Below the pieces are notes generated by a model. It did no database searches, was not told the DNA's origin, and was given only the letters and a program-made list of their open reading frames with translations. A stretch of 64,000 nucleotides of DNA, taken from the NCBI GenBank assembly GCA_015956445.1, contig WIUZ02000026.1, positions 62,001 to 126,000 on the forward strand, read 5' to 3'. This document shows, one piece after another, positions 6,950-56,662 of the stretch. The stretch is from Thelephora terrestris (taxonomy: Eukaryota; Basidiomycota; Agaricomycetes; Thelephorales; Thelephoraceae). The translations under genes were made by a program, and so were the position numbers. Within the stretch, counting starts at the first letter, position 1, and the number at the start of each line of letters is the position of its first letter.

Positions 6950-9713
6950 TCAGTTGGCGAAGGTATCAACGACAACAGCTTGCAGCTTTCCATCTCTGAT
7001 CGCCTCGTAGATTCTGGTGATGTTCTGGCCAATGGTCTCGTCGTCCCCACCGGGCATGCCGACCAAGCCATCGATGCCGACGTGGTCGAATCGCTCGAAG
7101 TTCTCCTTTCCGTGCATCTTAATCTTCAGCTCGGTCCTGATGTACTCGTACAGGGCCCTCGTCTTCTTGAGGTACTTGCTCGCTGGGGCGGGTCCATGAG
7201 CACCGTCAAGGAACGCTTTCGTGAGTTGATTGTAGAGGGAGCTCATTCGACTAGAGAGGGAGTTGCGGAATTCGGGGATGTTGCCGATGGCCAACGTCAG
7301 TGGTGGAGTGGCCAAAAAGTGATTCACGAGTGGTGTGGTGCAAGCCTCGGCGACGTGCTTCATCCGATCAGAACAGTCCATGGTAGTCGTTTCGTCGAGG
7401 GTGTGCACGATGGTCTTGAACAACTTTCCGTAAAGGATTGGAGCGCCAAAGTGGGCCAAAAGCTCTTCTTGGAGGATCTTCGTAATCCCGACAGAGAACT
7501 CGGCTTGCAAGGCGCGGAGGTCGAGCGCTGAAAAAGAGTGCGGAAATTAGAGTCAGCTAACACCGTTCGTGGAATAGAGCGTTGGTAAAGGTTGACGAGA
7601 AAAGAGCCGAGGGCGGAGTGACGTTTGATGGAGTGTTTTGAAACGCCGAGATGGGAAAGCGGAAAAGGTAAAAAGTGGATGATCGGCTTACCTTGGCACA
7701 GGACATACAGATAACTCGACATCAAAATTGTAAGCGTGTCAAGAGCGTTGATCGTCGCTCTGCCAGAGATCAAGGCCAGAGAACTGAATCGGGGATAAGT
7801 CAACCTACGCTCGTAAATACGAGTGACGGAGATAGACGTACTTGACTGCTTGATTGTGCATCTCGGCGCTTTGGATGTGTGTTGAAACGGGGGAAGCCAG
7901 GTACCCGAGTTCAGAAACATATGCTGCCATACCGATGTCGACACCCTTGGTGTGGTAATTTAAGCTGGGATCAGAGGCGGCAAGATTCGGCTGCAACCCG
8001 CGGTTCATGGTGGGGTTCATCAACTCAGTTGCCTGAGCAAACAGGAGTTTCCCAATGTGGTGGAGGGCAAGGCGAGTCTTCTCCATGGCGTTTGTGACAG
8101 CCATAGCCTGGAAGTTGCCACCGTGATGAACCGTTGCGGTCTTTCCGTTGATCAAAGGGTTGTCGGTAGCTGATAAAGATGTTAACGATCATGACTAGCG
8201 ACGAAATAAGGTCTCGACTTACTAGAGTTGCACTCCAGAGTGATGGTATCGAGGGCCGAGAGGATATCCTCAACCTGGGGACCGAGGAACTGAGGGGAGG
8301 TTCTAAGAGGGTACCTGTCCTGCCTGAGGACACCCTTATCGTCGTCGATGCTGGCCTCTTCCTCTTCATGGTCGGCGCCGGTAGCGAAGGAGCTGCCGTC
8401 CAAAAGGTTGTAGATTGTCCTGGCCACTTCAACTTGACCGGGGTGGGGCCGGCATTCGTCATGGATAAACGGATCAAATGATGCTTGGGTTCCGAGAAGA
8501 GCTTCAACGCCCATGGCTGTGAGGATCTGTGCGAGCAGCGCGAGATGTACGGCATCGTTGAGAGCTAACGAGGCGACAGATGCGGAGAAAGCGGTTCCGT
8601 TTAAGATCCCGAGGTGCTCCTTAGATTGAAGGGAGATCGGCTCAATGTTGTGTTGCGAGAGCGCCTTGTTCGAGGGAAGGATCTGAGTGGTCTTTGCGGA
8701 ACGGCAAATTGTGCGAATTGAGGGGTTGCCAATCAAGGTGCCGGCGATGTACGAGAGCGGTGATAAATCTGGAAGTGAGGGTGAGACATATCCTTATGGC
8801 CGACATGACGTCATAATACTCACCACCAGAGGCGGAGATGCTGCCACGTAGGGGCACGAGGGGGGTAATTTGTTCGCGAAGCAGATGGCCCATCTGTTGG
8901 ATGAGTTCGACACGGACACCAGAGTGGCCACGAATGAGCGAGTTCATGCGGATCAGGATTGCGCCCCTAACCCATGATTCGGGCATAGAAGTGCTGTTGA
9001 GGGGATCAAGAAGTGGAAGCGAATCGCCCTCTCCGGTGGAAATTACACCGGCGTGTTGGTGTTGCAACAGAGCACTACCCAGACGCAGCGGGTCATCAGT
9101 CCTTGTGTCCGCTGTAGAAGATTTGATCGGTTTGGCTGTACATGAGGAGGAGTCAAGGGGAGATAATGAGCGGCACATACCACTGCCTCCGTAACCGGTG
9201 CTAACACCATACACGCTCTTGCCGGCGCTCATCTTCGAGACAATAACATCACGGCTTTGCTGAAGTCGCTCCAGAACGCCAGCGGAATCATCGAGAGTGA
9301 CTGGGGCGTTGTACCTGGCAGCAGCGGTGACGGCTGGGACGGAAAGATTGTATCCGTCGACGAGGATCGAATTACCATTTCTGAATAAAAGTTATCAGCA
9401 CGTGCAGGGGGCGTGACCAGTCGCGCGAGACGCACCGGTACGAGTCGACCTCCTTGTAGGCCTCGATAAAATTCTGGAGAAGGTTTGTAGCCTTCGCAGG
9501 GGTCGGGGTCAAGGGTTGGTCCGGTTGTGTGGCCGGCGATTGTTGTGGAACGGCTCGAGCGATGGCGATCGACTCTTTGCCAGTGAGGGTAGCGCGACGG
9601 ACAACGGGTTCAAGGGTGATAGTCATGGAGAGAGATGATTCAGGGGAGAGGTTAGAGAGTTTAGAGTGAGGTATAGGAGAGAAGTGGGAGATGGGAATGT
9701 TGGAGGAAAGCAT
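6950..9713 (-). CDS. PAL: Phenylalanine ammonia-lyase
   Basis: Aromatic amino acid lyase of roughly 730 aa that deaminates L-phenylalanine to trans-cinnamate. It starts at ATG 9713 ([12 protein letters not shown]) and ends with VVVDTFAN at 6950, split by several short introns. Family landmarks include the catalytic-loop segment [13 protein letters not shown] and the Ala-Ser-Gly triad in [11 protein letters not shown], which self-cyclises to the MIO cofactor. Others are [42 protein letters not shown] and the helical C-terminal extension typical of eukaryotic PAL. An intron falls inside the codon after the Ala-Ser-Gly triad (near 8825). Length and motif order match fungal PALs, and no break was found. 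Some fungal enzymes also accept tyrosine, so PAL/TAL activity cannot be separated by eye. No pathway genes are adjacent, so a catabolic or phenylpropanoid role is inferred from the family only. Confidence 0.95.
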
Positions 9714-28848: not shown

Positions 28849-30917
28849 ATGTTGATGCTCTCCGAGCTTCCAGTCGAGATTCTGCTGGAGATTATTCAGC
28901 GTCTGCCAATTGCCACCGTCGTAACGTTGTCCGGCCTATCCAAATCATGGGCAACGTTCATGGCCACCAACGAATCTTCGGTATATCACAACATCTCGAA
29001 GCGACACGGGTATGCTTCAGGGGGTGACTCAGATGTTGCTGCTCCTTCGGAAGGTTGGAAAGCTTCGTGTGAGTGGCACTCGGGGGGCTTTGTTGGCTGC
29101 CAAATGACGATCCCTCAGTTATCCGGAAATTTCAGATCGAACTCCGGTGGATCGGGAAACTCCCCGGAAACCTCTCCCGAGTTAAGGTCCCGGGAAAAAC
29201 GGGGTTTTTCCACAGAATTAAGGTTGACGAAGAGGCTGGATACGTGATCAACACATTCGCCGAGGGTGGTCTCGTTGTTTCAGATATTCATGACCACAAG
29301 ATGTTGTGGTCGCTGGACGAGGTACCTCCAGGATCTATTTTTCCCTGGGCTGTCTGATGCTTGGGGATACGTTAGGAGGCCTGTGGTCCGTTTGTTCACT
29401 GCGAGCACGATCAAGGATATATTGTCTTCAACCGTTTCGATAACCACAAGGAAGTATGGAGACGGAAAATCGACGTTCTGGACATCCCAGAAGAGTCGTG
29501 GCCATCAGGGTCGCATAACAAGCCGGATGAGATTATGATGAAGGGAAATCGGGTCGCGGAAGGCCGATATCTCGATGCTGGCCGCAGCAGGGATCCGGAC
29601 CATCTTCGCGGACAATTCGTCCCCTGGGCACTTCTACTGGTACCTGATGACGGCCGGGCTTTCAAACTTACACGAGGGACATTACTAGTATCCAGCTACC
29701 AGAGAGCGTTCCTCTTCGATGTCGAAAAGGCCGAACTTCAACAAACCATCGAAGTGGAGGGCCAGGCCCCCGCTGGCAGACTTCGATACGTCGATGTCAA
29801 TGAAGAACACGTATTCATTGTCTGCACCAACCAACTGAGCGTATATGACCGGGCAAGCGGTTCGCGTGTTTTAGCCATCCCTGCCGGGAGACAGCACTGG
29901 GACTTTTACGCGAGTCCGGAAAATCAGTGGAGACGCACAGAGGGGACTCTCAACCAATGTGAACTAAGTTTCCGACAGGCCGAGTGCGCGGAAACCTACA
30001 GGACAGATGGCTTCCATGCTGGTGTGTGGTCCAGAATGTTAACTGCGATGGTTCACTTTGACTGACATTTCCATGTCAAGTTCACGTCTCCTCGTGCGGA
30101 AAGCATCTGGCGATCAAGGCGATAAGTAATAGGGTCATCCTCGTCCAGGACTTTTGGAGACTCCTCCCCACGTTGTCGTCTTCTTCCTCACCAGCATTGG
30201 TTCCATCCCCAATAACCCTCAAGGATATTTCGAAACAAGTTGATTTCTATACCGACCACCCGTCGCTGGAAACGGAGGGCTATCTTGCCTACGATTGCGG
30301 GAAGGTCGCTATAATAGGCACACACGGCATATACGTTCTGGTCTTGGATTCCATCCTCGACCAGTTGGGAGAGATTAGGCCACTCGTAAAGGACGATTCC
30401 CTCCGAACAGAACACGTATCATCAGAACACACGCCGACTTGGCCGAACCTTCGGCTGCGCCAAGTGGAGTTCGATGATCCAGAGATGTTCGACGAGGTCA
30501 CATTTTTGTGTCTGCAGTTGACAAAAACGAAACTCTTCTTTTCTGTGATCCCTGATGACGAGGTGGGCCGCTGGGATGGGAATATGTGGTGTTACGATTT
30601 TGCATCATCGCCATCTTCTACGTAGGTTTCTCAGACACTTCGTCGAAAGTGAACTGAACCCTGTTTGCACTTCTTACTAGCGCCGCACGGCTCCCAGAGG
30701 AGGGTGATTGGTCTGAAAAGGGAGATGTGGACTCGGAGGATGATCGGGACGCAGTGCAAGATTGGGATGAGGAGGATGATGGGGATGATTGGGACGAGGT
30801 AGAGGCCCGCCTGACCGGTAAGCATTATCCTCGAGGTCTCAATTGGCACGCCATTGCTGACGCTCCTTGGGATTCACGTTGACCACAGGCGATATGCGGC
30901 GAACTGGCCGGAAGTGA
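28849..30917 (+). CDS. F-box protein with beta-rich C-terminal domain
   Basis: ATG 28849 opens MLMLSELPVEILLEIIQRLP, a clear F-box. Introns at about 29070-29120 (gtgagt...cctcag) and 29321-29377 (gtacct...gttag) link it to FIRKFQIELRWIGKLPG, GYVINTFAEGGLVVSDIHDH, EACGPFVHCEHDQGYIVFNR, LLLVPDDGRAFKL, AELQQTIEVEGQAPAG and LRYVDVNEEHVFIVCTNQLS. This is the WD-like or propeller-like region of this fungal family. Another intron near 30025-30080 leads to the 30173-30620 exon. An acidic end follows (DSEDDRDAVQDWDEEDDG). The last exon is either spliced (gtaagc...ccacag) to end RRTGRK at 30917, or read through to a TGA at 30882. It probably serves as an SCF substrate adaptor. A decayed copy lies at 37.4-38.25 kb, and the downstream neighbour is a broken acyl-CoA synthetase copy. 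Confidence 0.8.
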
Positions 30918-31199
30918 AGAAACCCCCGCCTTCCTGGATTTCCTTTGTCAACTGACCCTTGTAACATATTTCCTCCGATTTTCTGTATTTGTACGTTTCG
31001 AGACCCACAGTGTCAGCGGCGAAAGCCGCAGGCAACACACATATGATTTACCGCCTCGCGAACGTCGGTGACCGATGCCGAACTGAACGCGGCCCCACAG
31101 TGCGGGGAGATTCTAGCAAAACAAAACGTGTCCGCAGGTGTCAGCGGCCTTGCTCTCGTTACGCGTGCTTCGCTTCCACCATACCCCGCTCCGTCAACC

Positions 31200-32240
31200 A
31201 TGCAACACAAGCCGCTCGATAACCACTGGCCAGAGCACATCGACTATGCACAACAGCTTATTGAGGTACCGGGCACGAGAAGACCTGGGGAAACGCGTGC
31301 GCCCTCTTTCAATCCCATTCCATGACAGTGAGAACTGATCCATATTCACTATTCCTCGTGTGTGCTGTATGTGGATAGCTGCATATCGTGGCGGTGCGTG
31401 TCGTCGTTTTCCGAAATGCAAATCCCGCCACTTTTCAGCCAATTGACTTGTCTTGCAACTCAGCTTTCTTGAGGCAAACTTCTCTTCAAGATCCCGACAG
31501 TTTCCAAACTACGATTGAAGCCTTCGAGCGAGGTTTTCTGGCCGCAAGCAGGGATGCCGACTGTGTAGGCTATCGTCCCAAAGTCTCCGACGAGCCCTTG
31601 AAGTTCGCCGAACCTTCGTCTGGCGATCCTACGGCGAAGTCGACACCAGACGCAAGAACCTCGGCAGCGCGATTAAAGGCCTCTTCAACTCTGGCGATGC
31701 TCTTGCCGCGGACGGGTTGGAGACGGTCGCGCTCTGGAGTATGAACATTACAGGTAAGTTATACAGTCAATCTCCGATATATCCGGGAACTAGGATTTCG
31801 TCTGAACGCTGGTTGGGTGTGAACATCAAAATGGCGGATCATTGACCTCGCTGTAAGCCTGTACGGGAAAGTGCTAGTACCGTTGTACGAAAACTTTGGG
31901 ACGGATTCAATCTGACAGCATCGAACCCTCAGTTGAGGAAATCGGAGCCAGGGTCAGCCAGGGGCCCTCTCCCGCCCCCAACTGTGACAGCGGATACTGT
32001 TGCCACGATCTGGTACACATCTGTAGGTCCAAATTCATGTGCCTACGTACCACCCGTCACGAAAGGGCTTCCAAAGGGAACTACTGGGAACCCGAAAGGC
32101 GCAGTTATTGCCCAAGGTGTTACATGCCACTTGCTCATATTTACGAGGTAATATCCGTCCCCCCCCCTCCTATGACCTTCCAGCGTTGCTGACAGTGCGG
32201 TTGCATCACAGCTGTGCGCGGGATGGAAATCGTTATCGAA
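31200..32240 (+). pseudogene. Truncated copy of long-chain acyl-CoA synthetase gene
   Basis: Closely matches the 5' part of the gene at 38584: the same start MQHKPLDNHWPEHIDYAQQL, the same VGYRPKVSDEPLKFAE block and the same AMP-binding sequence split by an intron (WYTS then GTTGNPKGAV). Relative to the other copy it lacks about 350 bp (equivalent of 39291-39638), lacks about 70 bp after the AMP-binding motif, and is lost after about 32240, before the adenylation core. Its upstream flank (30955-31200) is also duplicated, so the copy took the promoter with it. Transcription is possible but a working enzyme is not. Confidence 0.85.
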
Positions 32241-32438: not shown

Positions 32439-35400
32439 ATGGCGTCGATCTTGTCGGGTCACCTGCCGCAGTCCGCGCTTCACGATTGGCATCTGGACCA
32501 ATACCAACACAATCCGCTCACACAAGTTTTTGCCCTGACAATGACCCCAGACAATCCCTTACAACGACTCCGCGACCTCGACAAAACCTCGACACTCTTC
32601 CACGAGGAACTCAGCAATTTCATCCGCGGGGATGTATATCGAAGCGCTCTGTTGAACCTGCAAGACGAGAATTTGACGTGGCTTGTCGAGTATCTGGACG
32701 GCGTGAGTGTCCGGTTCATCCTTCCCTGCGCTACCCGTAACACCGGTATAGATTCTCTTCGGCGTTTCCGACCATAAGAGCCCCGCATTCCAAGAATTCT
32801 TGCACGAACTCAAACAGATATGCGGCATCAAGGAAGTTCTACCAGAATCGTGTACACTTCCAGAGCCACTCTTGGGGTGTGTGTACGAAGGGACCTTTAA
32901 TGGTTCAAAGGTGCGCATTCGACGTGTAAGGGTACCCCCTGGAGAAGACACACACAAGGCCAAGGAGGTGTGCACCTCTCGATCTATGTTTCCCTGTCCT
33001 TAGACTTCACGAATATCGTAGATCTTCCATCAAGTGGCTGTGCTGTCGAAATACTTGGCACATCGAAACATCGTCCCACTTCTGGGTGTGACCTTGGAAC
33101 CCCTCGAACTCGTTTCTGATTGGATGCCAGGCGGGGATCTTCCAGGGTACATCACAAAGCACCCAGATGCAGATAGACTCTCCCTTGTAGGTATCTCTTC
33201 TACCGCAATGTTCGATGCACTGATCCCCTACCAGTTATCCGACGTAGCCCAAGGCCTCCGCTACCTCCATTCCTGTGGTGTAATTCATGGAGATCTCAGG
33301 GGGGTACGCGATCGTTCTTTGTTTCGTTCACCGCCGTGCTGACACCGAGCCAGTCAACCATTCTTGTGGATGAGACAGGCCATGCACGGATCACAGACAT
33401 TGGCATTGCCCTGATCACTCAAGACCCGGTTTCAATATGGAGTGCTTCTCCTGGACCCGATCAGAATCTGCGATGGATTGCGCCAGAGATCTTAGAGGAT
33501 CGGGGGACATACGGCAAGGAGGCCGATGTTTTCTCGTTTGCAGGGGTCATGATTGAGGTCCGTTAAAAGCAACCAGTGCTCGGGACGAAGGAATGACAAA
33601 GTTGTTCGTTTCGGCAAAGGTTTTTACCGGTGCCGTGCCATTCGATGACGAGCCGCCCCACATGGCTAGGTTGGTGGTCATCGGCGGCGAGCGTCCCCCA
33701 CGGCCGGCCCATCCGGCTTTGACCGACGAGTTGTGGACATTGATGCAATGTTGTTGGAATGAGACACCTCATTTACGTCCACACGCAGCGAGGATTTCAT
33801 GGAGCTTGTAAGCTCCAACTCCAGAACCACACATGTGTTATTCTGATCTCTGCCTCACGTACAGTGTGGATCCATCATGGAAACGCCTGATAAATTCTCC
33901 TCCCACTTTGGATGAGCGGATCCCCCTGATCACCGACGTCCTCTCCGATCCCGACGAAACTGAGGTGGCCAAAGGACTTTGTGGAGATGATGCCCAGTCT
34001 TTTGTCGATGTGGCTGATGAGGTACTTGCTTTCCCTCTCGTCAAGGATAGACCCACTGAGTTGTACCTGGACTTGTTCGCGATCTCGGGTAGATGTTGGG
34101 TAGCCTAGGGCCGCCGCACCGGCAGATGTGTCTGAGTGTTCTGTGCAAGATATGTCGTCGCGAAGCTCTGCTTCCAAGACAACTACAAATCCCGCTTTGC
34201 TATGACCGATCGGAAGACCCACTGTATAGCGGCGGGTTCTCCGACGTGTGGAAGGGCGAACATCAAGGCACCGAAGTTGCGGTGAAAGTGATGAAAGTAG
34301 TGTTCACCAATATTGACAAGATCAGGCGTGTAGGTCACCGTACAAAACCTTCCAAAAGTCCGGACGGAGGTGCTGATTATGATTGCGTAGAGATTTTGCA
34401 AGGAAGTCATCACGTGGAGAAGTCTCTGCCATCCAAACGTGCTTCCATTGTTGGGAGTGACAATGACGAACCAACGCTTCGCAATGATATCAGAGTGGAT
34501 GAATAATGGAAACATCAACGAGTTTATCAAGGCGCACACAAGCGTAAATCGGTTCGAGCTTGTAGGGGCCTCATACTATTACCGACTGCATCCGCCGTTG
34601 ATAACCTGCTTATAGCTCAAAGACGTCACCAGAGGGTTGATATATTTGCATGATCAGGCGCTGATCCATGCAGATCTAAAGGGGGTAAGTATTGTCTTTG
34701 CCGTCCGTGGCTGACCTACCGCTCAACATGCACCCAGGCGAACATCCTGATTGACCAAAGCTTCCACGCGCGCTTGGCAGATTTTGGGCTCCTCACCCTT
34801 GTATCAGACCCCACAAACCCAATTCCCCCAATCTCAACTACAAATTTCGGTGGCACCTTCCGGTGGATGAGCCCAGAGTTCCTCAATCCAGAAAAGTTCG
34901 GTCTCGAGTACAGTCGACCAACGAAAGAATCAGATTGTTACGCGTTGGGAATGGTGATGTTCGAAGTGCTCGGCGGCCGGGCACCTTTCGCCCGCTATAA
35001 CGAGTTTATCGTCATTCAGAGAGTTGTCGACGGTGAGCACCCGGGAAGGCCGGAATCGACGTTGTTTACGGACGATATGTGGGGAACCCTGCAACAGTGT
35101 TGGTCATATCAGCCGGAAGGGCGCCCCACCGTTGAAGTCGTACTTGAGCGTTTGGGAAGAGTTTCAGTGGCCTTCGTTACTGACTTTCGCAGGCAAGCCC
35201 AACAACGCTTAATGAACCGCTCGTTTTCCCGGGGTGAACTTTCTTCTTTCCTCGAGACGGTCTTTCGGAACAGGGAGTGGACACACATCATTCAACGTCC
35301 TCAAGGAGCTAAAGCTCAGGCAATTGTCGACATACTAGATGAGGTACTTTATCATGTTCTCGATCTCCAAGGAATGTGTTGATTTATTCTCAATCATCTA

Positions 35401-36602
35401 CGCTCCTTATCAGGCATTGAATGATCCAAAACTCCCATCAAATATACGAAACAAGTGTATACAATCGCTGCATGAGATCTGCACCCGTCATGCCTTGCCC
35501 CCAGGCTCACTGATAATCGAGCTCTGCGACAGCCCAGCTGACGTTGTGCCACACCCTGGAGGATTTGCAGACGTGTCAAGGCGGAAATATCAGGGGCAGC
35601 AGGTCGCTGTCAAAGTGCTGAATAAATACACCACTGGTGACTCACAGACCATGGTTCAGGTAAGTTATTAATTGTGTTCTATTTCTTTGTGATTGTTGAC
35701 ACATTTATTATGAACTGTACAGCAGCACTGCAAGGAGTTGATGTCATGGAAGGCTCTTCAGCATCCAAATGTTCTGCCGCTCATAGGAGTAGTAGCAACC
35801 GAGGATGAGTTCGCGATAGTGTCAGAGTGGATGTTGAACGGGAATATCAACCAGTTCATTGAAGGGTGTCAGGATGCAAATCGGTTCGAGCTTGTTGGTT
35901 TTTGTCCAATCCCCTGCAACCCACATCAGTTGCTAACTGTTGACGATTATGGCACCCACAGCTGAGCGACGTCGCCGAAGGCTTGAGCTACGTGCATAAT
36001 CAGGGGGTGATCCACGGAAATCTCAAAGGGGTGAGACTTTTAATCCTAGAATCAGATCTTTCGGTTTAACGACATTGATATTTCAGGCCAATGTTTTGGT
36101 CGACCACACCTGTCATGCCCGCCTCGCAGATTTTGGGCTTCTCACACTTCTTCCAGATTCGATCATCCCAAACTCATACACACGGAATGGTGCCATTCGA
36201 TGGATGAGTCCTGAACTTCTTGACCCTAAGTTTCAAGACCGTCGTCGGACGAAATATTCGGATTGTTATGGTCTCGGGATGTTGATATATGAAATCCTCA
36301 GCCGGCATGTTCCATTCCACCGTTATGGGGATTCAACCATATACGAGCAGGTGGTACAAGGTGGTCGGCCCGAGAGACTTGAGGGAGTGGAAGGGGTGTG
36401 GTTCACTGATGATATTTGGGAGGTACTGGAACGTTGTTGGGCGCCCACACCGCAGGACCGTCCGAGCATCGACAATGTACTTCTTTGTTTGGAGAAGACT
36501 TCGAAGTGTTGCATTCTACCTTCCCCAGCCCCGCCAATGGCGACCACTTCGTTAGCTGATTCATTTGCAAGGTGGCTCCCAGCCTGCGACCACCATCAGT
36601 AA
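32439..36602 (+). CDS. Triple tandem kinase: pseudokinase-kinase-pseudokinase
   Basis: One reading path joins three modules, each a short helical linker plus a TKL-like kinase domain. The linkers match: NLTWLVEYLDG, AQSFVDVADE and AQAIVDILDE, each followed by a phase-0 intron and a helix ending ELKQIC, VLCKIC or LHEIC. Module 1 (to about 33811) has SKVRIRRVRV where the ATP-anchoring Lys should be (Arg instead), HGDLRGSTILVD (loop Asn replaced by Thr) and DIG for DFG. Module 2 (33868-35342) keeps TEVAVKVMKV, HADLKGANILID, ADFGLLTL and RWMSPEF. Module 3 (35413-36602) keeps QQVAVKVLNK and ADFGLLTL but has HGNLKGANVLVD, Asn for the catalytic Asp. Introns before the catalytic loop and after DLKG recur in all three. 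Estimated length is 1,100-1,200 aa. No signal peptide or membrane segment was seen. Reading it as three separate genes is possible but no stop or new start separates the modules. Confidence 0.8.
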
Positions 36603-37439
36603 AAGAGGCATTTGGCGATTCCAACTTATTTTGATTACTTGATCTTGTCCGAGTTATGTGAGGTTATGCGTGCCAAACTTGATTACCGCTTGTCAGTTCC
36701 ACCGAATCATGTACGATAACAAGAAAATGATATTCAGCATCATTCAGTTTTGATGCATCAAGAGTGTCAGTGAAGCTTGTGTCCCTCAGTGGGTGGGGGT
36801 GGCTCCCTTGAAGCCGGGCAATAGATGTGCAGCACTGATGTTTATGACGGACATGATCCTGGTCCCGTCTTCAGCACGGTCTGCTTGGAAGATCTATAGA
36901 CCGTTAACGTTGTCTGGGTCTTGGTTGGCGGAACTAGTATGCAGAATCCATGCACCCTCGTGACGTCCAGGCCCCTTACACCAGCTTCATCCGACCCAGC
37001 AGCGATAACAATGCGATCACGGCGGGGCCGGGCCCGAACCATCCCCCCCCCCGCTCTGAATTTGGACTGGATTCCAGTCTAGGCGGGGCACCGTTATACC
37101 ACTTGTTTGCCACCTTGGGCTGGATCGGATAGTTTCGCGGTCCACCAGAATGATTACTTGGGGTGCAAAAGACGGCCTTGGCGGAATGGAAAACGGATAT
37201 TTGTTCAGCGTACTCGACGGTCGGGCAAGCGGAGATTCGGTGAAGGTGGAATTCTGTTGAAAGAACAAGAACACCTGGACGAGGATTTCAAGGTTCTCTT
37301 GCTTGATATATTGGCATATCGGCCGAGTTTTCGGAATGAAATATAATCACTGCAAGGGTAACCTCGCTCAATGCGGATGGTCCATCAACTGGACCTGTCA
37401 CCTCCTCATCGTCAGCCTCGAGGTCTTGGCCGTCATCAC
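36603..37439. other. Intergenic, no gene seen
   Basis: Between the kinase gene and the decayed F-box copy. A short frame near 37240-37310 (KEQEHLDEDFKVLL) looks protein-like but has no supported start, stop or splice context. Confidence 0.4.
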
Positions 37440-38250
37440 GTTTGTTCATGACCTGCAAGCACGATCAAGGGTATATCGTCTTTGACTCCATACTTCCTTA
37501 TGGTCATTGAACCAGTTGGAGGAAAGATGTTCTAGACATCCCAGAAGAGTCACAGCTATCAGGGTCGTGCAACGGACCGGATGAAATTACGATCAAGGGA
37601 AATCTGGTCGCTGAGGCCCGATATTTCGATGCTGGCTGCCCGCAGCAGGGATCCGGACCATCTTCGCGGACAATTCGTCCCCTGGGCACGTCTACTGGTA
37701 CCTGATGACGGTCGGGCTTTCAAACTTACACAGGGGACCTTATTCCTGTTACTCTGCTTCCAGGAAGCGTTCCTCTTCGGTGTCGAAAAGGCAGAACTTC
37801 AACGCTATGCCAAGTGTAGTCTGAAGATCCAGAGATGTTCGACGAGGTCACATTTCCGTATCTGCAGGTGACAGAAACGAGTCACTTCTTTTCTGTGATC
37901 CTCGATGACGAGGTGGCAACTGGGATATGAAATATGTGTGTTACGATTTTGCATCATCGCCATCTTACAAGTATGTTTCTCGGACTCTTCGTCGAAGGTG
38001 AACTGAACACTGGCTGCGCTTCCAACCAGCGCCGCACACCTCCCAGAGGAGAGTGATTTGGCTGAAAAGGAAGATGTGGACTCGGAGGGTGATCGGGGCG
38101 CCCAGAGCAAGATTGGGATGAGGTAGAGTCTACGGTAGAGTAAGCATTATCCTCGAGGTCCAGGATGCGACCTCAAGGCCTCGCTTGGGCCACCATCGCT
38201 GACGCTCCTTGGGATTCACGTTGACCAGAGGCGATATGCGGCGAACTGGC
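37440..38250 (+). pseudogene. Decayed F-box gene copy
   Basis: Matches the intact gene at 28.8-30.9 kb in two blocks. 37456-37800 resembles about 29405-29750 (shared LDIPEES, GSGPSSRTIRPLG-type and PDDGRAFKL coding). 37806-38250 resembles about 30455-30900. Roughly 700 bp of the parent between the blocks is missing, the F-box end is absent and the frame is broken. It sits directly upstream of the near-complete acyl-CoA synthetase, mirroring the order at 28.8-32.2 kb. Confidence 0.85.
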
Positions 38251-38583
38251 CGGAAGTAAAAAACAAACCGATTTTCTTGGTCGACTTAGTCTGGAATCCA
38301 GCCTCGAATTTAGAGGCGAGGAGGACGCGATTCGGAAGGGCACGGTACCTTAGGTCGACTGACCTCTGTAACCATAAGTAACATATCTCCGATTTTCTGT
38401 ATTTGTACGTTTCGAGACCCACAGTGGCGAAAGCCGCAGGCAACACACATGTGATTTACCGCCTCGCGAACGTCGGTGACCGATGCCGCAGTGCAGGGAG
38501 ATTTGAGCAAAACGGAACGTGTCCGCGGCCTTGCTCTCGTTACGCGTGCTTCGCTTCCGACGCCATACCCCGCTCCGTCAACC

Positions 38584-41347
38584 ATGCAACACAAGCCGCT
38601 CGATAACCACTGGCCAGAGCACATCGACTATGCCCAACAGCTTATTGAGGTACCGGGCACGAGAAAACCTGGGGAAACGCGTGCGCCCTCTTTCAATCCC
38701 ATTCCATGAAAGTGAGAACTGAGCCATATTCACTATTCCTTGTGTGTGTTGTATGTGGATAGCTGCATATCGTGGCGGTGCGTGTCGTCGTTTTCCGAAA
38801 TGCAAATCCCGCCACTTTTCTGCCCATTGACTTGTCTTGCAACTCAGCTTTCTTGAGGCAAACTTCTCTTCAAGATCCCGACAGTTTCCAAACCACGATT
38901 GAAGTCTTCGAGCGGGGTCTTCTGGCCGCAGGCAGGGATGCCGACTGTGTTGGCTATCGTCCTAAAGTCTCCGACGACCCCTTGAAGTTCGCCGACAACT
39001 TCGTTTGGCGATCCTATGGCGAAGTCGACACCAGACGCAAGAACCTCGGTAGCGCGATTCAAGGTCTCTTCAACTCTGGTGATGCTCTTGCCGCGGACGG
39101 ATTGGAGCCGGTCGCGCTCTGGAGTATGAACATTCCAGGTAAGTTACACAGTCAATCTCCGATATCTCCGGGAACGAGGATTTTGTCCTAACGCTGGTTG
39201 GAACTCAGAATGGCGGATCATTGACCTCGCTGTAAGCCTGTACGGGAAAGTGCTCGTACCGTTGTACGAAAACTTCGGGCCGGATTCAATTGGTGCATTC
39301 CATTTCGTCTACTCTTCCGGCGCCACAAACTGACACCGATATGACACCCAGAATACATGTAGGCCGTGTTTAGCAACGTCATTTACAAAAGGCTAACGAG
39401 GCCGAACCGCCCAGCCTTGGCCATGCGGACGTTTCCCTCCTCTTTCTTCAACCCGGTGGGCTCGCAACTGTCCTGAGTATTGCTCACAAACTCCCTGCTC
39501 TCAAAACAATTGTCACGATTGGACCCTTACATGCCGAGGCGAAGAACATCCTCGGACTTTGGTCCAAGCAGAATAACATCAAGGTGTTTGAAATGTCCGA
39601 GCGTACGTCAGTGCACCTTGGGGTAGGAGTAAGGAGTCTGACAGCATCGATCCCTCAGTTGAGGAAATCGGCGCCAAGAACCCTCTCCCGCCACCGACTG
39701 TGACAGCGGACACTGTTGCCACGATCTGTTACACATCCGTAGGTCCAAATTCATGTGCTACGTCCCACCCTGTTGATCCCGAGCGAAAGGGAACCACCGG
39801 GAACCCGAAAGGCGCAGTTATAACCCAAGGTGCCTTGGCCATCAGCACATATGGATGTCTTGCCGGCTATGACATCCCACCAACTGAAATCGTCACCCTT
39901 TTGTCTTACATGCCACTTGCTCATATTTACGAGGTAATTCACAGCTCCCCACCAATGACCTTTCAGTGTTGCTGACAGTGCGTTGCATCACAGCGGTGCG
40001 CAGAACTTCTTGTTTTGGCTGATGGAGGACGAATTGGCTACTACACTGGCTCCCCTCTTCGAATCGTCGAAGATTTGGGAGTCCTGAAGCCAAATTTCTT
40101 CCCTTCGGTCCCCCGCTTGTTGAATAGAATCTATCAGACGATCATGGCGGCCGCCAACGCCCCTGGTCTGAAGGGGGCCCTGCTCAGGCGCGCGATCCAG
40201 GTTAAGCTCGAGAGACTCGAAGCCACCGGCGTCGACACTCATCCACTTTGGGACCGTCTCGTATTCAAGAAGGTGTGGGAATTCTCGGTTGTCGGCTTTT
40301 GGTGCTAACGTGTGAATCCCTCAAGGTCCGACAACTACTCGGTGGAGAAATCAAACTCATTGCCTCTGGTTCGGCTCCCCTGAATCCTAAGGTGTTCAAC
40401 TTCTTGCGTATCGCTTTTTCTTGCATCGTGATCGAGGGTTTTGGAGCGACCGAGACTTGCGCGACGTGCTTGCGTTTGGCTCCCGGAGATCCAACCGGTG
40501 CTGGTCGTGTCGGATTTCCTCCAGCTTGCTGCGAAGCTAAGCTCGTTGATGTACCAAGTATGGGGTACAGTGTGGAGGATAAGCCGTATCCTAGGGGTGA
40601 GTTACTAATCCGGGGTGACAGCACTTTTACGAGGTACCACAAGAGTGAGCCCTCTTCATTATTCCAGTCACAGCGTCAAGGTGCTGATGTATCTCCGCCA
40701 TTCGCAGACCCTGAAAGTACCAGAGAGGCTAAGGACGAGGAAGGTTGGGTTCACACCGGTGATATTGCCGCTATTGACGAGTGTGGGAGGTTCCAAATCA
40801 TTGACCGTATAAAGGTGAGCCTTCGGAGTGCGGGTGGTGCAAGTTTTGTACCTAACGCAGAATTGCGATCACGCAGAACATCATGAAACTGGCCAACGGA
40901 GAATACGTTGCTCCGGAACGAATCGAGAACGTCTTGTCTGCGGCGCCAATTGTCGCCCAAATATTCGTACACGGTCACTCCCTCGAATCATACCTCCTTG
41001 CCGTTGTGATACCCGACCCGGTCAACCTCGCAAGATTTGCTTCTTCTATCCTCGGAAAGGAGATCTCCGGCACTGATATCCCCGTGTTGGACGAGGCCGT
41101 GAAAGACGAGCGGGTCGTGAAAGCCATCCTCAACACCTTGACAGAAGAGTGCGCGAAAAACGGATTGAAGGGGTATGAGTACGTTAAGCGGATTCACGTC
41201 TCGAATGAGCTGTTCTCTGTCGAGAACGGTACCTTGACCCCGACGTTCAAGATCAAGCGGAAGAACGCCGCAGCGAAGTACCAAAAGGAGTTGGATGCCT
41301 TATACGCGCTTGGAGAGCCACAGCCTGCTAACGGCGCCAAGCTTTGA
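38584..41347 (+). CDS. Long-chain acyl-CoA synthetase, AKL C-terminus
   Basis: AMP-binding enzyme that activates fatty acids to acyl-CoA. Landmarks in order: MQHKPLDNHWPEHIDYAQQL, CVGYRPKVSDDPLKFAD, WRSYGEVDTRRKNLGSA, EWRIIDLAVSLYGKVLVPLY, the P-loop YTSGTTGNPKGA (split by an intron), LSYMPLAHIYER, IKLIASGSAPLNPKV, GFGATETCATC, GWVHTGDIAAIDECGRFQII and KLANGEYVAPERIENVLS, the fatty-acyl-CoA synthetase signature. It ends QPANGAKL; AKL is a known variant of the peroxisomal targeting signal PTS1, so import for beta-oxidation is plausible. The segment at 39290-39390 is uncertain. The best join there gives GPDSIGAFHF then QRHLQKANEAE, shorter and different from the family, so a small deletion or a missed exon is possible. 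About ten introns. A 5' copy of this gene lies at 31.2-32.2 kb. Confidence 0.85.
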
Positions 41348-43128: not shown

Positions 43129-44134
43129 TGTCACAGAGAGCATAGGCATCCACTACTCGAGAGTCGAGAAAATAAGGGCACCGGTGCGCGGACCCTGGGC
43201 CTGACTCCCTTTATGCCCCAAGATGGTGAGGGGAACTGATCAAGCAAAGAAAAGATGAGGGCGCGCGCTTCGTTCAATGCTCTTGAGTAGGATCATCATC
43301 GGGAAATGCCTCGAACAGCAATTCCTGTACGATTTTCAGCATCAGTGATTCCCGACCGTCGCAGGTCGTTGTTACAGGCCAAACACATACTTAAGCGTCT
43401 GGGCTGTGAGTCCCGTAATGATGCATGATGATCTGAGACGTGATGGTTCGGGGTTCCACATCATTTGCCCGGCGAGCTTCGTTCGGAGTCAAATGTTCAT
43501 AAAAGCGACAAGAAACACTGTCTATGGAGAAGGACGGCTCGCTCTTTCTGACTATTGGCGTTGAGTCAATGACTCTTTGCAGAGGCGGTCACGATGGAAC
43601 TTGATCACGGCGTTTATTGCAGCCCGACGTCGACGTCGACGGTGATCACAAAAGGCCAAACGTTTCGAAGCGGCCAAATAGAGTCTCGCTGGTCATGACA
43701 ACGCCTGCCATTAAGCGCTAACCTGCGCTAACTGGCCCATCGGATATTAGGCGCATTCCCAACGATATATATCTACGCAGAACAGGGAGGTAACTAGATG
43801 TACAGAACGGGGCAACGAGACTTGGTTCTTGAAGGAAACCGAAATCAAAATGTCCCAAACACCGTTCATTTGTGGGTTCTATAGCATAGCAGACCCGAGA
43901 CAAGTTTCCAGCTCACGGCAACGGTAGCAACGACGGGGTCCATATCTACTATAAGTGGCAGCGTGGCGTGCAATCCCCGATATCTGAATTGGATACTTGC
44001 GATAGAACTATTCGGACACAAATTGGGCCGTCCCTGAACCACCGGATCATTTTCTCCAAACGGTTTCGAGGCGCACTGCTGGGGAAGCGCCATCTCTCGG
44101 AGAGGATGTAGGGAGGTGATACCAGTAGCTCAGA
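43129..44134. other. Intergenic, no gene seen
   Basis: Holds the promoter of the surface-protein gene and the 3' flank of the DUF4246 gene. A short GTCGAC/GACGTC repeat (43628-43642) is the only structure noticed. Confidence 0.45.
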
Positions 44135-46205
44135 TCACATGCTGAATTCCTGAACACCCGAGAAAGAAACAGCGTATCAGTCAACAAAAACGCAGAGAGA
44201 GGCAATGTAAATGAACAGACCACTCCGAAGAAATCAGTCGAGTGTCGATCGACAAACGCCGTTCGCTCCCTCATCAATTTCTCCCTAAAACCTTCTGCCT
44301 CCTTTCTGCTCATGAGCCCATCCACATTTTCGACGATCAAGTCCAACAACTCTCTCGGCAGCTTCCTGAATAGAGATCCTTCCTCGGGGTTGCATACCGC
44401 CTCTTGTACCCATTCTCTTTGTTGTGGGGTAACGCGGGAGGTTGAGATGATGTCGAGGTTGGGGTCGCACAAGCAGACCATGAAGATCTTTTGGACGCCG
44501 GGTCTCGTGGGATCCTCGAGGTGGAATGGCCTGACTTGGTGTTGGTAGAGGTTTGGGAAGGCAAGGCAACGCCCGCCTTTTGTCGGGACACTGCCGACCT
44601 CCTGTGCGAGGGGGTCCTCCCTGCTCACGAGAGTGCTAGGTGAGTTGGCTGTTTTTCGCAATCTGGGAAGCACCCACTCGTCGATCCCGTATAAGGCTTC
44701 AGTACAGAAAAAATCGTCGGGTCCATGGGTATTAGGTTCAGAGACGGAAAGCTTGAAAGCTAATCTCGACTCGCTGATGTTCTCAGATTCGTAGTAGTAG
44801 ATGAAATTCGCAACGATGGTCTCGTTTTCCATTCCTAGATAACATAAGTGGGGACGGCTCAGGTGAACCTATCATCTCCAGAACTTACCTTCTACGTGCC
44901 ACTCACCTCCAGGATACCTCGGCTTCTCTGGCGTAAGAACAACGTTTACGAGTTTTATGATAACCTGCAGTCTCGTTCCCCGGAGGGAAACAGTGCGGTG
45001 AACTTCATCCAACCAGACATTGTACTCTTCACAGGCATCTGGGAGGTACATTGTCTGGTCAAACCAGTACCCTTCTATCGCTTCCTGGAAGCCATCTCCC
45101 TCTTCCGAATCGTAACCCGGTGGGAAGTAATTTGGCAACTCTACGGAACCTGGTTGGTTCGGTCGATCGTAAGCGCCGCCAGCCCCCCAGATACAGCGGC
45201 CCCTATCGTGTTCAAGCCTGCTCGGGGAGAGCCTCCGACGTAAGTCGGACAAGACGTTTTCGAACATGGGGACTGCGTATTTGAGAACCTTGGGGACTAC
45301 TTTATAGAGTTCGAGGCCTGTGACAGGGTTGATGTTGTTGATATAAGGAGAGTCGAGTCTAACCTCTCCACGTTCTGAGACGGAGAAGTCGGAGGCGAGC
45401 CACTGAAATTTTTGGGAGGTGAAGTACTCGCTTCGGGCTTCATCCGTGGCCAATGGAGCCCTGATCACCCCGAGGACATTCTTCCCTTCAAGCGTCCTGC
45501 CGTAGACAACTGGGTAGAGAGACGGGTGTACCAGGTCGAATCTTTGGCCATCTGATCCGGGCCGCCAATCTTTCTGGGCATCGGAGACATTCTCGAGAGG
45601 TGCGACTGCAATGAGGAGTTCCTGCCTGAGCTCCTCTGGGATGAGGGTGTCCGATTTCCAGATTCGGTCGTAGGGTCCTAGCTATCATAGTTATCGTCAG
45701 ACATCGCGATCGCAACTTGGATAGGTGCCCGGTACCTCGATCCCATCATTTCTCTTCCTGATCCTTGCGTGAGCGAAAAGCTCTCCAAGAGTGTAATCGA
45801 TCTGAGGGGTAACGGGGACATTTAGGTCTTTGCAGTGAGGTCAAGCTAACACGCACGCACCATCCTCTCGGTAAGCGCTCTCGCCTTAGGGAGACCCTTC
45901 TGTTGTTCGAGGGCTTCTTGTTTCCATTTTTCCATGGTCATGTCGTCATCGACCTTCTCCCACCAGTATGACTTCTCGCGGATGGCGCTCGAAAGGGCCC
46001 ACATCTTCAGTTCGAAAATCTGTGAACATATCAGAGTAGGTCACGAGTCGCGAATCTGTCGATGCGGAGTGGTGCATACGGTCTTCGGAGGCTCAATTCC
46101 GCACAAAGAATCGTCATCCTCGCAAATCTCAAGTGAATCCCAGTATTGAAATGGGTGGGGATACCGGGTTACCCCGTTATCTGGTGACGTTTTGTGCGTG
46201 CTCAT
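44135..46205 (-). CDS. DUF4246 domain protein
   Basis: Starts MSTHKTSPDNGVTRYPHPFQ at 46205. A 60-nt intron joins CGIEPPKT to IFELKMWALSSAIREKSYWW. Further exons read KARALTERM, YTLGELFAHARIRKRNDG, YDRIWKSDTLIPEELRQEL, SLYPVVYGRTLEGKNVLG, YINNINPVTGLELYKVVPKV, LPDACEEYNVWLDEVHRTVS, LTPEKPRYPGGEWHVEG, NETIVANFIYYYESENISES and FPNLYQHQVRPFHLEDPTRP. The last exon ends STDFFGV then EFSMC at 44135; reading through the final intron instead would end at 44047. The PGG.WH.EG...IYY..SEN segment resembles a double-stranded beta-helix of Fe(II)/2-oxoglutarate oxygenases (WH.E placed like HxD/E, with a distal H...R), but the biochemical role of DUF4246 is not established. Length of about 560 aa is usual for the family. 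Confidence 0.85.
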
Positions 46206-53910: not shown

Positions 53911-55415
53911 ATGCTTGCCGGCCCATCAAGCGCGTCCACATCGACTGCGTCGAGCCACCGCCTGCTGTACCGTGGCGCGCTGGAACTTCCAGACTCATAC
54001 ATGGTTCTCGACGGCCTCAGTTTCACCCTCGCTTTTGACTCCGGGGAACGAGGAAACACGTCTGTGACGTCGACGCCAAGCGGGAAGTCCAAATTGGACC
54101 TGCTGGAAAACCCACTGGCATTGGCGCTTGAGAGTATGCGGGGAAGACCGAGCTTACAGTTCTTAGGTACGACGAAGATCGCTGATGTGCACGTAGATGG
54201 ATCGTTCAACGCGAAGGTGTAAGTCTCCCTTCCTCACCACGTATCACCGCCACTTTATCAGACAGACAGCGCAAAGTTCCAAAAGCTGATTCCATCGTGT
54301 TCCTGCTTCTCATAGGTACATCCACCCATTATCTACACTGACTCAACTATACTTTGACAATCTCCTCTGTTCATCTCCGGTCAATGCCGATAGTGGCCGA
54401 ACGGAATGTGGCGTACGCGTAGGGCTTGGAGATCAGGGTTCGTCCTAGTTCGTTTCTCCTTGTTGTGAGCCTCCCTTAGCATGGAGGTCTGTGCGCTGAA
54501 TTGTTGTCTGACACAAGATCACCGGTAGATGCTCAGTGTTCCTCGGAGATCTTGATCTACGGTTATCTTGAGTCACGAGATCAAGCGCCCACAGCCTCCC
54601 CACAATCTTCTGCCACACCTCCAGAACTATCGTTAGTCGCCAGGAGGATCGTTCCAGCACCTTCCGTCCCACCGCCGGTGATGAGACTTCCCCGGCCCGA
54701 CGACCCCACACCTCGGAAACCTCCACTAGTGATCTTCGGAAAGAAGACCGGACAATCGCAGCGAGCGGCGAGTTCTAAACACAGGGAGCCGGAACCGGAA
54801 GATTCGTCTCTGAAGCGAGGGAAAGAGATAACGAAGAACCTACCGCCGAAAGCTGGGAGCGTGAAAGGTCTCGGAAGGAGCTCGAGCTTCCGGATACCGG
54901 ATGACGTGTTCGGCTCCACCCCATTGGCCGCTTCGACCTTGTCCGTAAAGGGTAAAGGGAAGGGAAAGATTGAAGGTCTGAGCGGTGAACAGTTCGAAAC
55001 CCTTAATAAAGCGGTGAGTGTGGCTGCGCCACCCCCCGTCTTTTGTTTCCAAAGTACGCTAAAGCCCTTTTGGTGCCTGCTTGTGGTCGTATTCGTCTTC
55101 GTAGGAGGTGAAGAAGTCCGCAGTAAAGTTCTTGTCGAAGTACGGCATCACAAAAGAGGATCCAGAGTTCAAAGAGGTCTTCGGTTTTGTGTACCGGGGT
55201 GCTTCATTTGCTCTAGTGAGTCTATGTATTCATTTCACGTCTTTTGTTGGGACCCTGGGACGTGTTCCATGCAAGTGCAGTGGATGCTCATCGGTTTGAT
55301 CTTCCAACAGAGGTCATGCATAAGATCAGAGGTGATCAGTACGAACCTGATCGATAAATGTGCAGACATGCATGCGCGGATGTACGTTCGAGGTGATGGC
55401 AGTGTCGTCAAATGA
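53911..55415 (+). CDS. Sld7-like protein (uncharacterised)
   Basis: Starts MLAGPSSASTSTASSHRLLY and continues GALELPDSYMVLDGLSFTLA and ENPLALALESMRGRPSLQFL. Introns link NAKV to YIHPLSTLTQLYFDNLLC and later to CSSEILIYGYLES. A Pro/Ser-rich linker (RPDDPTPRKPP) and a basic stretch come next. The C-terminal helical domain reads VKKSAVKFLSKYGITKEDPE, FKEVFGFVYRGASFAL, then LIDKCADMHARMYVRGDG, ending at 55415. The N- and C-terminal blocks resemble Sld7, a DNA-replication initiation partner of Sld3, but this is from memory of the pattern and needs a profile search. It converges with the glutathione transferase gene. Confidence 0.6.
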
Positions 55416-55635
55416 CTGGATATGTACACTGTCCCGCCCATGGGCTCAACTGTCGCTCGGGAGATTGCGCCCGGATTGATCTTTATCAACTGGCGGTTGA
55501 TCTCACTCACTCCAAGCGTCAATGCACGAAAGTTGAGGGTGGGGGAAAGGGATAACCATTGAAAAGTACGTTGGGTAGAAACGAAACAGGATGGGCGTAT
55601 GAGTGGAAATCCGTTGATTTTGTTCCGTGCTAAGA

Positions 55636-56662
55636 TCAAGGGAGCGGTCTCCCGCTTTTGATCGCCTCCAAGATGGATGATTTCATTTGGCCGGAGAGGT
55701 GGAGGGCGTAGATGGCCTCGTAACATTCCTTGTTCTGTTGGTAGGGGGTGTGAGGGTGATCCGGGAACACGAAAAAGAAGTGAACACACGGAGAAGGTCT
55801 TGAGCACATTTGGCCGGTTTACGATGAGTTGACAATAAGCAGCAAATTTGGGAGAGACGTTCTCCCTGTTGAAGCCTCTGTTTTCGACAAGTATCCAATC
55901 CCTGATGATCCAAGGGGTTAGAGAGAGATCGACGATGCTGAACTCCTCTCCGAAAAAGTAAGGACCACGAATCTTGTCTGCGAAGCATTGAAGGTACTTG
56001 AGCCATTCGCTCATGGCGGCGGCCTGGAGCTCGGGGGTCTGGGCATGGAAGATGCGGAAGTAGCCAGGCACGATGTACTTGTTGATGACATCGACCCAGA
56101 TCCTGGCTTGAGCGGCGTTGTAGGGATCTGTTGGTCTCAATTGAGGCTTGTGTTGGGGGTAAGCGTCTTCAAGGAACTCGAGGATAACGTGAGAGTCGTG
56201 AAGGGGTTTTCCCTGATAAGTGAGAGCGGGAATCAGTCCTTTGGGATTGAGAGCTAAATACGATAGGTAAAGATGTTGCGATGTAGGGCGACCGAGAGCG
56301 TCAGGTGAGTGTAGTGAATGCGGGGTGGGGGAGAAGAGAGATTGAGCAATCAATGGAGATTTGGTGTTCGCACTCGTGATCACTCACCAAGGAGTGCAGG
56401 GTCCTTATTGAATGGATTGGTCTCGACGTATTTGTAAGGGATTCCTCGCTCCTCGAGGGCTACCCAACATTTCTGGGTGAAAGGGCAGAACTTGAGGGTA
56501 GAGGGAGGAGGGGGTGAAGTGAATATCAAGCGAGATTGAATCGGGTGTGAAACTTACCCAGCCTCCATGCAGGACAATTTCGCAGTCTGCCTGATGGCTT
56601 TTTACGGTCTCTTCGGCTAGGCCTGTGGCACGAGGGTGACTTTGGAGGACGTGGGACGCCAT
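55636..56662 (-). CDS. Glutathione S-transferase, omega-like
   Basis: ATG 56662 gives MASHVLQSHPRATGLAEETV and DCEIVLHGGW. After an intron comes FCPFTQKCWVALEERGIPYK, a Cys-type CPFT motif placed where omega GSTs carry the catalytic cysteine. Then come LNPKGLIPALTYQGKPLHDS (thioredoxin fold, cis-Pro and ES-like DSHVILEFLED), YPQHKPQLRPTDPYNAAQAR and the helical domain IRGPYFFGEEFSIVDLSLTP. The last exon reads NKECYEAIYALHLSG and ends SGRPLP at 55636; reading on past the last donor would instead give a long unlikely tail. About 290 aa. Likely roles are glutathione-dependent reduction and detoxification. It shares a divergent 470-bp promoter region with the bZIP gene. Confidence 0.88.

What the first reader, a model, noticed from the sequence alone, without database searches (positions are those of the whole stretch)
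32439..36602. Single gene with pseudokinase-kinase-pseudokinase architecture built from three repeated modules
Three helical-linker + kinase modules lie in one uninterrupted reading path. Linker motifs (VEYLDG, VDVADE, VDILDE), the phase-0 intron right after them, and introns before and after the catalytic loop recur in each module, so the gene arose by internal or tandem triplication. Catalytic residues are seen intact only in module 2. Module 1 has Arg for the ATP-binding Lys and Thr for the loop Asn. Module 3 has HGN for HGD. An active kinase flanked by two dead ones suggests allosteric control, analogous to JAK or plant tandem-kinase immune proteins. I do not know of this exact layout being described in fungi.
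Basis: partly seen in the sequence, partly recalled or inferred. Interest (0 to 1): 0.85.

Follow-up and report, generated by a model that had tools for sequence, protein, structure and literature searches.

The report
Fungal tandem kinase with dead domains
A fungal gene fuses three kinase-like units, of which only the middle one looks able to work; nine of the ten sister gene pairs examined in the same genome join one damaged with one intact-looking kinase, much like certain plant and animal immune signalling proteins.

Summary
A 15-exon model (32439-36602, +) gives one 1115-aa frame with three helical-linker + kinase modules and the residues as described. One gene is likely: L021 and L022 share the 15 exons and phases, and the phase-2 intron joining module 1 to module 2 recurs in 10 of 10 M1-M2 pairs read. 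The interpretation needs correcting. (1) Only module 1 is an inherited pseudokinase: VAIK Lys is Arg in 6 of 6 clade-I genes. Module 3 is complete in L021, L022 and L035, so HGN is private to this copy, as is Thr for Asn in module 1. (2) M1 belongs to a different kinase subfamily (100/100), so simple triplication fails. (3) No decay: window-branch omega 0.28-0.38, neutrality rejected for each module. The larger result: 10 of 10 pairs lack the VAIK Lys in exactly one partner (M1 in six, M2 in four), against 1 of 35 modules outside pairs; this rests on two independent losses in one genome. Best reading: a fungal tandem kinase-pseudokinase, analogous to Gcn2, JAK and plant TKPs. Function is inferred; no RNA was seen.

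The parts
32439..36602 (+). whole gene model, 15 exons, 1115 aa: 32439-32702, 32752-32967, 33022-33186, 33235-33303, 33354-33557, 33620-33807, 33865-34021, 34093-34329, 34391-34561, 34616-34684, 34738-35343, 35414-35659, 35723-35893, 35962-36030, 36087-36602 (start may be 32541)
   Evidence: hand model; modules 1-2 rebuilt with a paralogue query; same 15-exon layout in L021 and L022
32541..32868 (+). helical linker 1 (VEYLDG, phase-0 intron 32703-32751 follows the motif)
   Evidence: hhalign to linkers 2 and 3 above shuffles
32752..33807 (+). module 1 kinase domain, pseudokinase by sequence (M1 subfamily)
32920..32922 (+). Arg in place of VAIK Lys (VRIRR)
   Evidence: Arg in 6 of 6 clade-I M1
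33357..33359 (+). Thr in place of catalytic-loop Asn; private to this copy among 6 clade-I M1
33808..33864 (+). phase-2 intron joining module 1 to linker 2; phase conserved in 10 of 10 M1-M2 pairs read
33865..34197 (+). helical linker 2 (VDVADE, phase-0 intron 34022-34092 follows the motif)
34093..35172 (+). module 2 kinase domain, all four catalytic residues present (Lys 34285-34287, Asp 34673-34675, Asn 34741-34743, DFG Asp 34780-34782)
35170..35527 (+). helical linker 3 (VDILDE, phase-0 intron 35344-35413 follows the motif); its first half shares one uninterrupted exon (34738-35343) with the module 2 C-lobe
   Evidence: same exon in L021, L022, L035
35414..36509 (+). module 3 kinase domain
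36019..36021 (+). Asn in place of HxD Asp (HGN); private to this copy among the 4 tandem M3 copies

Best explanation
The gene encodes one three-module protein of an expanded fungal Tyr/Ser-Thr-like kinase family, made by fusing an M1-type and an M2-type [helical linker + kinase] gene, with a further M2-like module (M3) added. Module 2 is the catalytic engine. Module 1, which lacks the ATP-anchoring lysine in every clade-I gene read yet is kept under purifying selection, acts as a built-in non-catalytic regulator or bait for module 2 (as the pseudokinase domain does in Gcn2; JAK2 recalled). Module 3 was probably a second working kinase in the ancestor; in this copy it has lost its catalytic Asp but keeps its ATP-binding residues, so it may now serve as a nucleotide-binding scaffold or a substrate. 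Shown: gene structure on DNA, residue losses, conservation in paralogues, selection. Inferred: transcript, catalysis, regulation, any role in immunity or self-recognition.
For: Single frame and conserved 15-exon layout in three genes. Phase-2 joining intron in 10 of 10 pairs. In 2 of 10 pairs (L023, L042) there is no Met between the preceding stop and the end of the linker-2 exon, so no start within that stretch. M1 Lys to Arg in 6 of 6 clade-I genes; M2 complete in 6 of 6. Reverse pattern in clade II (L043-L046): M2 has Gln for Lys and Gly for the DFG Asp in 4 of 4, M1 complete in 3 of 4. Outside pairs 1 of 35 modules lacks the Lys and 32 of 35 are complete. Window-branch omega M1 0.29, M2 0.38, M3 0.28; omega = 1 rejected with 2dlnL 22.6, 11.4, 45.1; the window branch does not differ from the others (2dlnL 0.39, 0.07, 2.62), so no relaxation is seen. 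Direct pseudokinase-kinase activation is reported for Gcn2 (PMC4014428, abstract).
Against: No RNA, protein or structure. The lysine rule rests on two independent losses within pairs (three changes on the whole tree), all in one genome. L046 breaks the stricter rule: its M1 is HGR, so both partners look dead. A missing VAIK Lys does not prove inactivity (WNK kinases place it elsewhere; recalled), and in clade I the HGD is kept in 4 of 6 M1 and DFG in 4 of 6. If intron 6 were retained, the protein would end at a stop right after module 1 in the window, L023 and L042, so an M1-only product is possible. The one structure prediction failed (mean pLDDT 32.5).
Confidence: 0.6

Rival explanations
1. 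Sensor/decoy reading: the dead module is a bait for a foreign or non-self protein, and the live module starts a cell-death or defence response, as proposed for plant tandem kinase-pseudokinases.
For: The family is large, with many hits grouped on C23 and C7 (lists cut). One M1-M2 gene, L023, is preceded by an N-terminal helical domain whose family has 167 matches in the genome; by eye and from recall it resembles the basidiomycete MLKL-like domains described in PMC9815663 (passages). [quoted passage not shown] A decoy role for plant TKPs is proposed in PMC6170490 (passages).
Against: The window gene has no such N-terminal domain. Pfam gave no match for the L023 domain (query with one mistyped residue). 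No expression, polymorphism or genetic data; omega below 1 shows constraint, not diversifying selection.
Confidence: 0.25
2. Ordinary paralogue decay in a large, redundant kinase family: duplicated kinases lose residues at random, and the fused layout is incidental.
For: Very large family (219 and 203 matches); scattered losses exist (window M1 Thr, window M3 Asn, L042 HGN, L047 HCN, L046 HGR, L030; also the cut-off module at L043 3-575 with HGN and TEYG, dropped from the counts). The window's M3 has a longer end branch than the three other tandem M3s (0.39 against 0.16-0.17).
Against: Purifying selection on all three window modules without relaxation; no in-frame stop in the 10 aligned pairs; Lys loss concentrated in pairs, 10 of 20 against 1 of 35.
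Confidence: 0.2
3. Two or three separate neighbouring genes read as one.
For: M1-type modules also occur without an M2 in the stretch read (L047, L048, L049). Module 1 would end at a stop if intron 6 were kept.
Against: Module 2 C-lobe and linker 3 share one open exon in 4 of 4 genes; the joining phase-2 intron is kept in 10 of 10 pairs; no conserved Met for a separate module 2 or 3.
Confidence: 0.05

Closest known systems
Plant tandem kinase-pseudokinases (TKP: Yr15/WTK1, RPG1)
   Same: Two kinase domains fused in one protein, one with key residues lost and one intact
   Different: Plant proteins; described as a kinase plus a pseudokinase, whereas the window gene has three domains, each with its own helical linker, and the clade-I order is dead-live. 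Compared from passages of PMC6170490
Janus kinases (JH2 pseudokinase - JH1 kinase)
   Same: Dead kinase N-terminal to a live one in one chain (recalled; the TKP paper draws the same parallel)
   Different: No FERM or SH2 found in the window protein; extra third module; not shown to be a tyrosine kinase
Gcn2 (pseudokinase - kinase)
   Same: Fungal pseudokinase beside a kinase, with direct activation reported (PMC4014428 abstract)
   Different: No HisRS-like or RWD domain found by Pfam in the window protein
Agaricomycete-expanded TKL / FslK kinases
   Same: Large lineage-specific set of Tyr-kinase-related kinases in mushroom-forming fungi (PMC3937382 and PMC2838846, passages)
   Different: PMC3937382 holds 0 occurrences of 'two kinase domains' and 'pseudokinase', PMC2838846 0 of 'tandem' and 'multiple kinase domains'; membership was not tested by phylogeny
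MLKL / basidiomycete MLKL-like proteins
   Same: Pseudokinase used as a switch; L023 has a helical N-terminal domain before its dead M1
   Different: The window gene has no such N-terminal domain and carries a complete kinase in the same chain

Membership tests
Pfam PF07714 (Tyr and Ser/Thr kinase domain) | match above curated cut-off | tested here: met
   412.3 bits against 23.1, three stretches
Plant TKP | fused kinase and pseudokinase in one protein | tested here: met
   (sequence only; transcript not seen)
Plant TKP | descent from plant kinase families | not tested
JAK | FERM and SH2 domains | tested here: not met
   no such Pfam match at E <= 1 in the whole protein
JAK | pseudokinase N-terminal to active kinase | tested here: met
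   by residues only: module 1 then module 2
Gcn2 | RWD and HisRS-like domains | tested here: not met
   no such Pfam match at E <= 1
MLKL-like | N-terminal four-helix bundle before a pseudokinase | tested here: not met
   L023-type N-terminal domain absent from the window, and the model has at most 34 aa before linker 1; the fold of the L023 domain was not tested
FslK | placement as the fungal lineage closest to animal tyrosine kinases | not tested
   no reference set of FslK was held
Pseudokinase (module 1) | no phosphotransfer | not testable with these tools
   only residue loss seen

The most novel reading that the evidence does not exclude
Fungi have their own family of tandem kinase-pseudokinase proteins in which one dead partner is a functional requirement: two lineages in this genome killed opposite partners (M1 in one, M2 in the other) and kept the other alive. 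This would be a further, independent origin of the JAK/TKP design, plausibly serving fungal self/non-self recognition.
Probability: 0.3. Interest if true: 0.8.

Novelty: new variant of a known kind. Interest (0 to 1): 0.56.

Why it matters
Plants and animals each fuse a dead kinase to a live one in immune signalling. If fungi do the same, with the dead partner swapped between lineages of one genome, the swap is a natural experiment: it would test directly whether what matters is having one dead and one live partner rather than which position is dead. The gene set also gives a large family in which pseudokinase function can be tested by genetics.

Tried and rejected
Internal triplication from one module: rejected by the tree (13-row M1 clade at 100/100 apart from M2/M3). 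A separate origin of the window's M3: the data do not reject one clade with the other three tandem M3 (p-AU 0.434), so not claimed. Dying gene: rejected by codon models. Pattern census of VAIK motifs: KVRIRR gave 18 matches with 18 in the control, so the count itself means nothing, though 5 of the 18 are window, L021, L022, L041 and L042. Two matches on C10 looked like further M1 pseudokinases, but the DNA (L049) showed two kinases with Lys, HGD, Asn and DFG present. The K-to-Gln pattern (235 matches, control 113, list cut) and the VC[VI]K[RK] pattern (52, control 41) were not used for counts. Relatives outside this genome: one scan each of genome contigs and viral contigs found 24 and 3 pattern stretches, none a relative; these collections are bacterial, archaeal and viral. 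Structure: one contiguous exon (module 2 C-lobe plus start of linker 3) folded with four rows gave mean pLDDT 32.5, useless; no fold search was run. Papers: eight searches listed no paper whose title or abstract start describes a fungal tandem kinase-pseudokinase family other than Gcn2; 101 rows were listed in all, out of 637 matching, and the library lacks most subscription papers.

60 modules scoring at least 170 (or in L049) were found and 55 were complete at the four sites; the 5 incomplete ones (in L031, L032, L036, L039, L043) were dropped, one of which (L043 3-575) shows HGN and TEYG. The 35 modules outside pairs include the M3s of the window, L021 and L022, the M2 and M3 of L035, and five divergent kinases. 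The short loci L001-L020 were not aligned separately. The aligner allows only GT-AG and GC-AG introns, so it cannot report a broken splice site; linker 1 of L043 and the stretch between linker 2 and module 2 of L046 are ill resolved. The linker-2 profile left out L046, and the linker-1 profile L035, L045 and L046.

Full report
What is there. The window lies at G000:C19:62001-126000 of a 40.6-Mb genome in 60 contigs. The reading path at 32439-36602 splices cleanly into 15 exons and 1115 aa. Pfam finds three kinase stretches in the product. Each module is a helical linker of about 85-95 aa followed by a kinase domain ('helical' is from the sequence; no structure was obtained). The linkers are homologous to each other beyond column-shuffled controls. 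After each linker motif comes a phase-0 intron, and in each module the catalytic loop sits in a 69-nt exon of its own. Module 1 alone has a further intron in its C-lobe.

One gene or three. L021 and L022 (C23:885.3-889.3 kb and 900.9-904.8 kb) have the same 15 exons with the same phases. L023 has modules 1 and 2. A spliced aligner run with paralogue queries rebuilt the window's modules 1-2 intron for intron and showed the phase-2 joining intron in 10 of 10 M1-M2 pairs; in L044-L046 its donor is GC. Module 2's C-lobe and linker 3 lie in one exon in the window, L021, L022 and L035. In L023 and L042 no Met lies between the preceding stop and the end of the linker-2 exon; in the other eight there is one, but at no conserved place. 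Three separate genes is therefore unlikely, but no RNA was seen.

Which residues are lost, and where. At the four sites (VAIK Lys, HxD Asp, loop Asn, DFG Asp) 55 of 60 modules could be scored. Clade I is the window, L021, L022, L023, L041, L042: M1 has Arg for Lys in 6 of 6; Asp of HxD is lost in L023 (Ile) and L042 (Asn); Asn is lost only in the window; the DFG Asp is kept in 6 of 6 (as DIG in the window and L023); M2 is complete in 6 of 6. Clade II is L043-L046: M2 has Gln for Lys and Gly for the DFG Asp in 4 of 4; M1 is complete in 3 of 4 (L046 has HGR). So 10 of 10 pairs lack the lysine in exactly one partner, and 9 of 10 have a fully complete other partner. Of 35 modules outside pairs, 32 are complete; the three exceptions are the window's M3 (HGN), L030 (Glu, and Gly for the DFG Asp) and L047 (HCN). 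M3 is complete in L021, L022 and L035. On the 55-row tree the lysine state changes three times, so within pairs the rule stands on two events: this is suggestive, not a proven law.

History. In the 52-row tree, M1-type modules form one clade with full support, apart from the M2/M3 and stand-alone kinases. Clade-I M1s are together (97/91); clade-II M2s are together (100/100). M2s of clade I mix with stand-alone kinases in an unresolved part of the tree. The simplest account is an M1-M2 fusion, then an M2-like third module, with later loss of different partners. The window's M3 is on a longer branch (0.39) than the other three tandem M3s but is not shown to be of separate origin (p-AU 0.434).

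Selection. A codon model with a free window branch gave omega 0.29 (M1), 0.38 (M2) and 0.28 (M3); fixing it at 1 was worse by 2dlnL 22.6, 11.4 and 45.1, and freeing it gained only 0.39, 0.07 and 2.62, so there is neither neutrality nor visible relaxation. The alignments hold four or five sequences, and the M3 window branch is long (1.49 per codon), so the figures are rough; the HGN change could be late on that branch.

How it may work. Module 2 has the four catalytic residues. In the PDB its best match after a doubled EGFR entry is RIPK1, and module 3's best match is the kinase CTR1; these are family-level likenesses. Module 1 has no VAIK Lys and, by eye, no glycine loop, but is conserved, which is the usual mark of a regulatory pseudokinase (general knowledge). 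Gcn2 shows in yeast that a pseudokinase can switch on the kinase beside it (PMC4014428, abstract). The link to self-recognition or cell death is a lead only: L023 carries an N-terminal helical domain of a large family (167 matches) that I recall as resembling basidiomycete MLKL-like domains, but Pfam did not confirm this and the window gene lacks it.

Known or new. Tandem kinase-pseudokinases are known in plants (PMC6170490, passages), JAKs in animals, Gcn2 in fungi. Expansion of Tyr-kinase-related kinases in Agaricomycetes is known (PMC3937382, PMC2838846, passages). A fungal family of fused linker-kinase modules with one dead partner, swapped between lineages, did not appear in the listings of eight searches of the open-access library. 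I call it a new variant of a known kind.

Noticed in passing
29389-32219 and 37439-40001: A direct duplication (80-91% identity in five blocks) brackets the kinase gene. The upstream copy, with a weak AMP-binding match at 31846-32151, stops 220 bases before the kinase start, while on the downstream side an AMP-binding ORF lies at 40206-40883. The kinase gene may sit at the breakpoint.
   Followed up: partly
L023 (minus strand; C1:4207.0-4207.6 kb and about 4202.4 kb): A helical N-terminal domain precedes the M1-M2 gene and occurs again further downstream; its family has 167 matches in the genome, some lying in open frames of 860-900 aa.
   Followed up: partly
L021 1327-2441 and 7563-8666; L022 797-1914 and 8034-9147: Both C23 three-module genes have a divergent kinase of another subfamily on each side. 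The two upstream ones are sisters (99/98); the downstream ones are not clearly so.
   Followed up: partly
L041 3455-4508 and L042 3442-4352 (minus strand): After each M1-M2 gene comes another M1-like kinase; in L041 a further linker (LLDE) follows it, suggesting more tandem kinase genes in a row.
   Followed up: no
window 36019-36021; L042 M1; L047 M1; L023 M1; L046 M1: The HxD Asp is lost in 5 of 55 scored modules, three times to Asn, and in a sixth, incomplete one (L043 3-575).
   Followed up: no
window 33808-33864: Retention of the joining intron would end the protein at a stop right after module 1, also in L023 and L042; a possible switch between M1-only and full-length forms.
   Followed up: no
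window 8645-9391, 44050-44868, 55238-56383 (minus strand): Other genes of the window by Pfam: aromatic amino acid lyase, DUF4246, glutathione S-transferase.
   Followed up: no
genome contigs C23 and C7: Many of the listed M1-type hits lie on C23 and many M2-type hits on C7 and C23, as expected of locally expanding families; the lists were cut.
   Followed up: no
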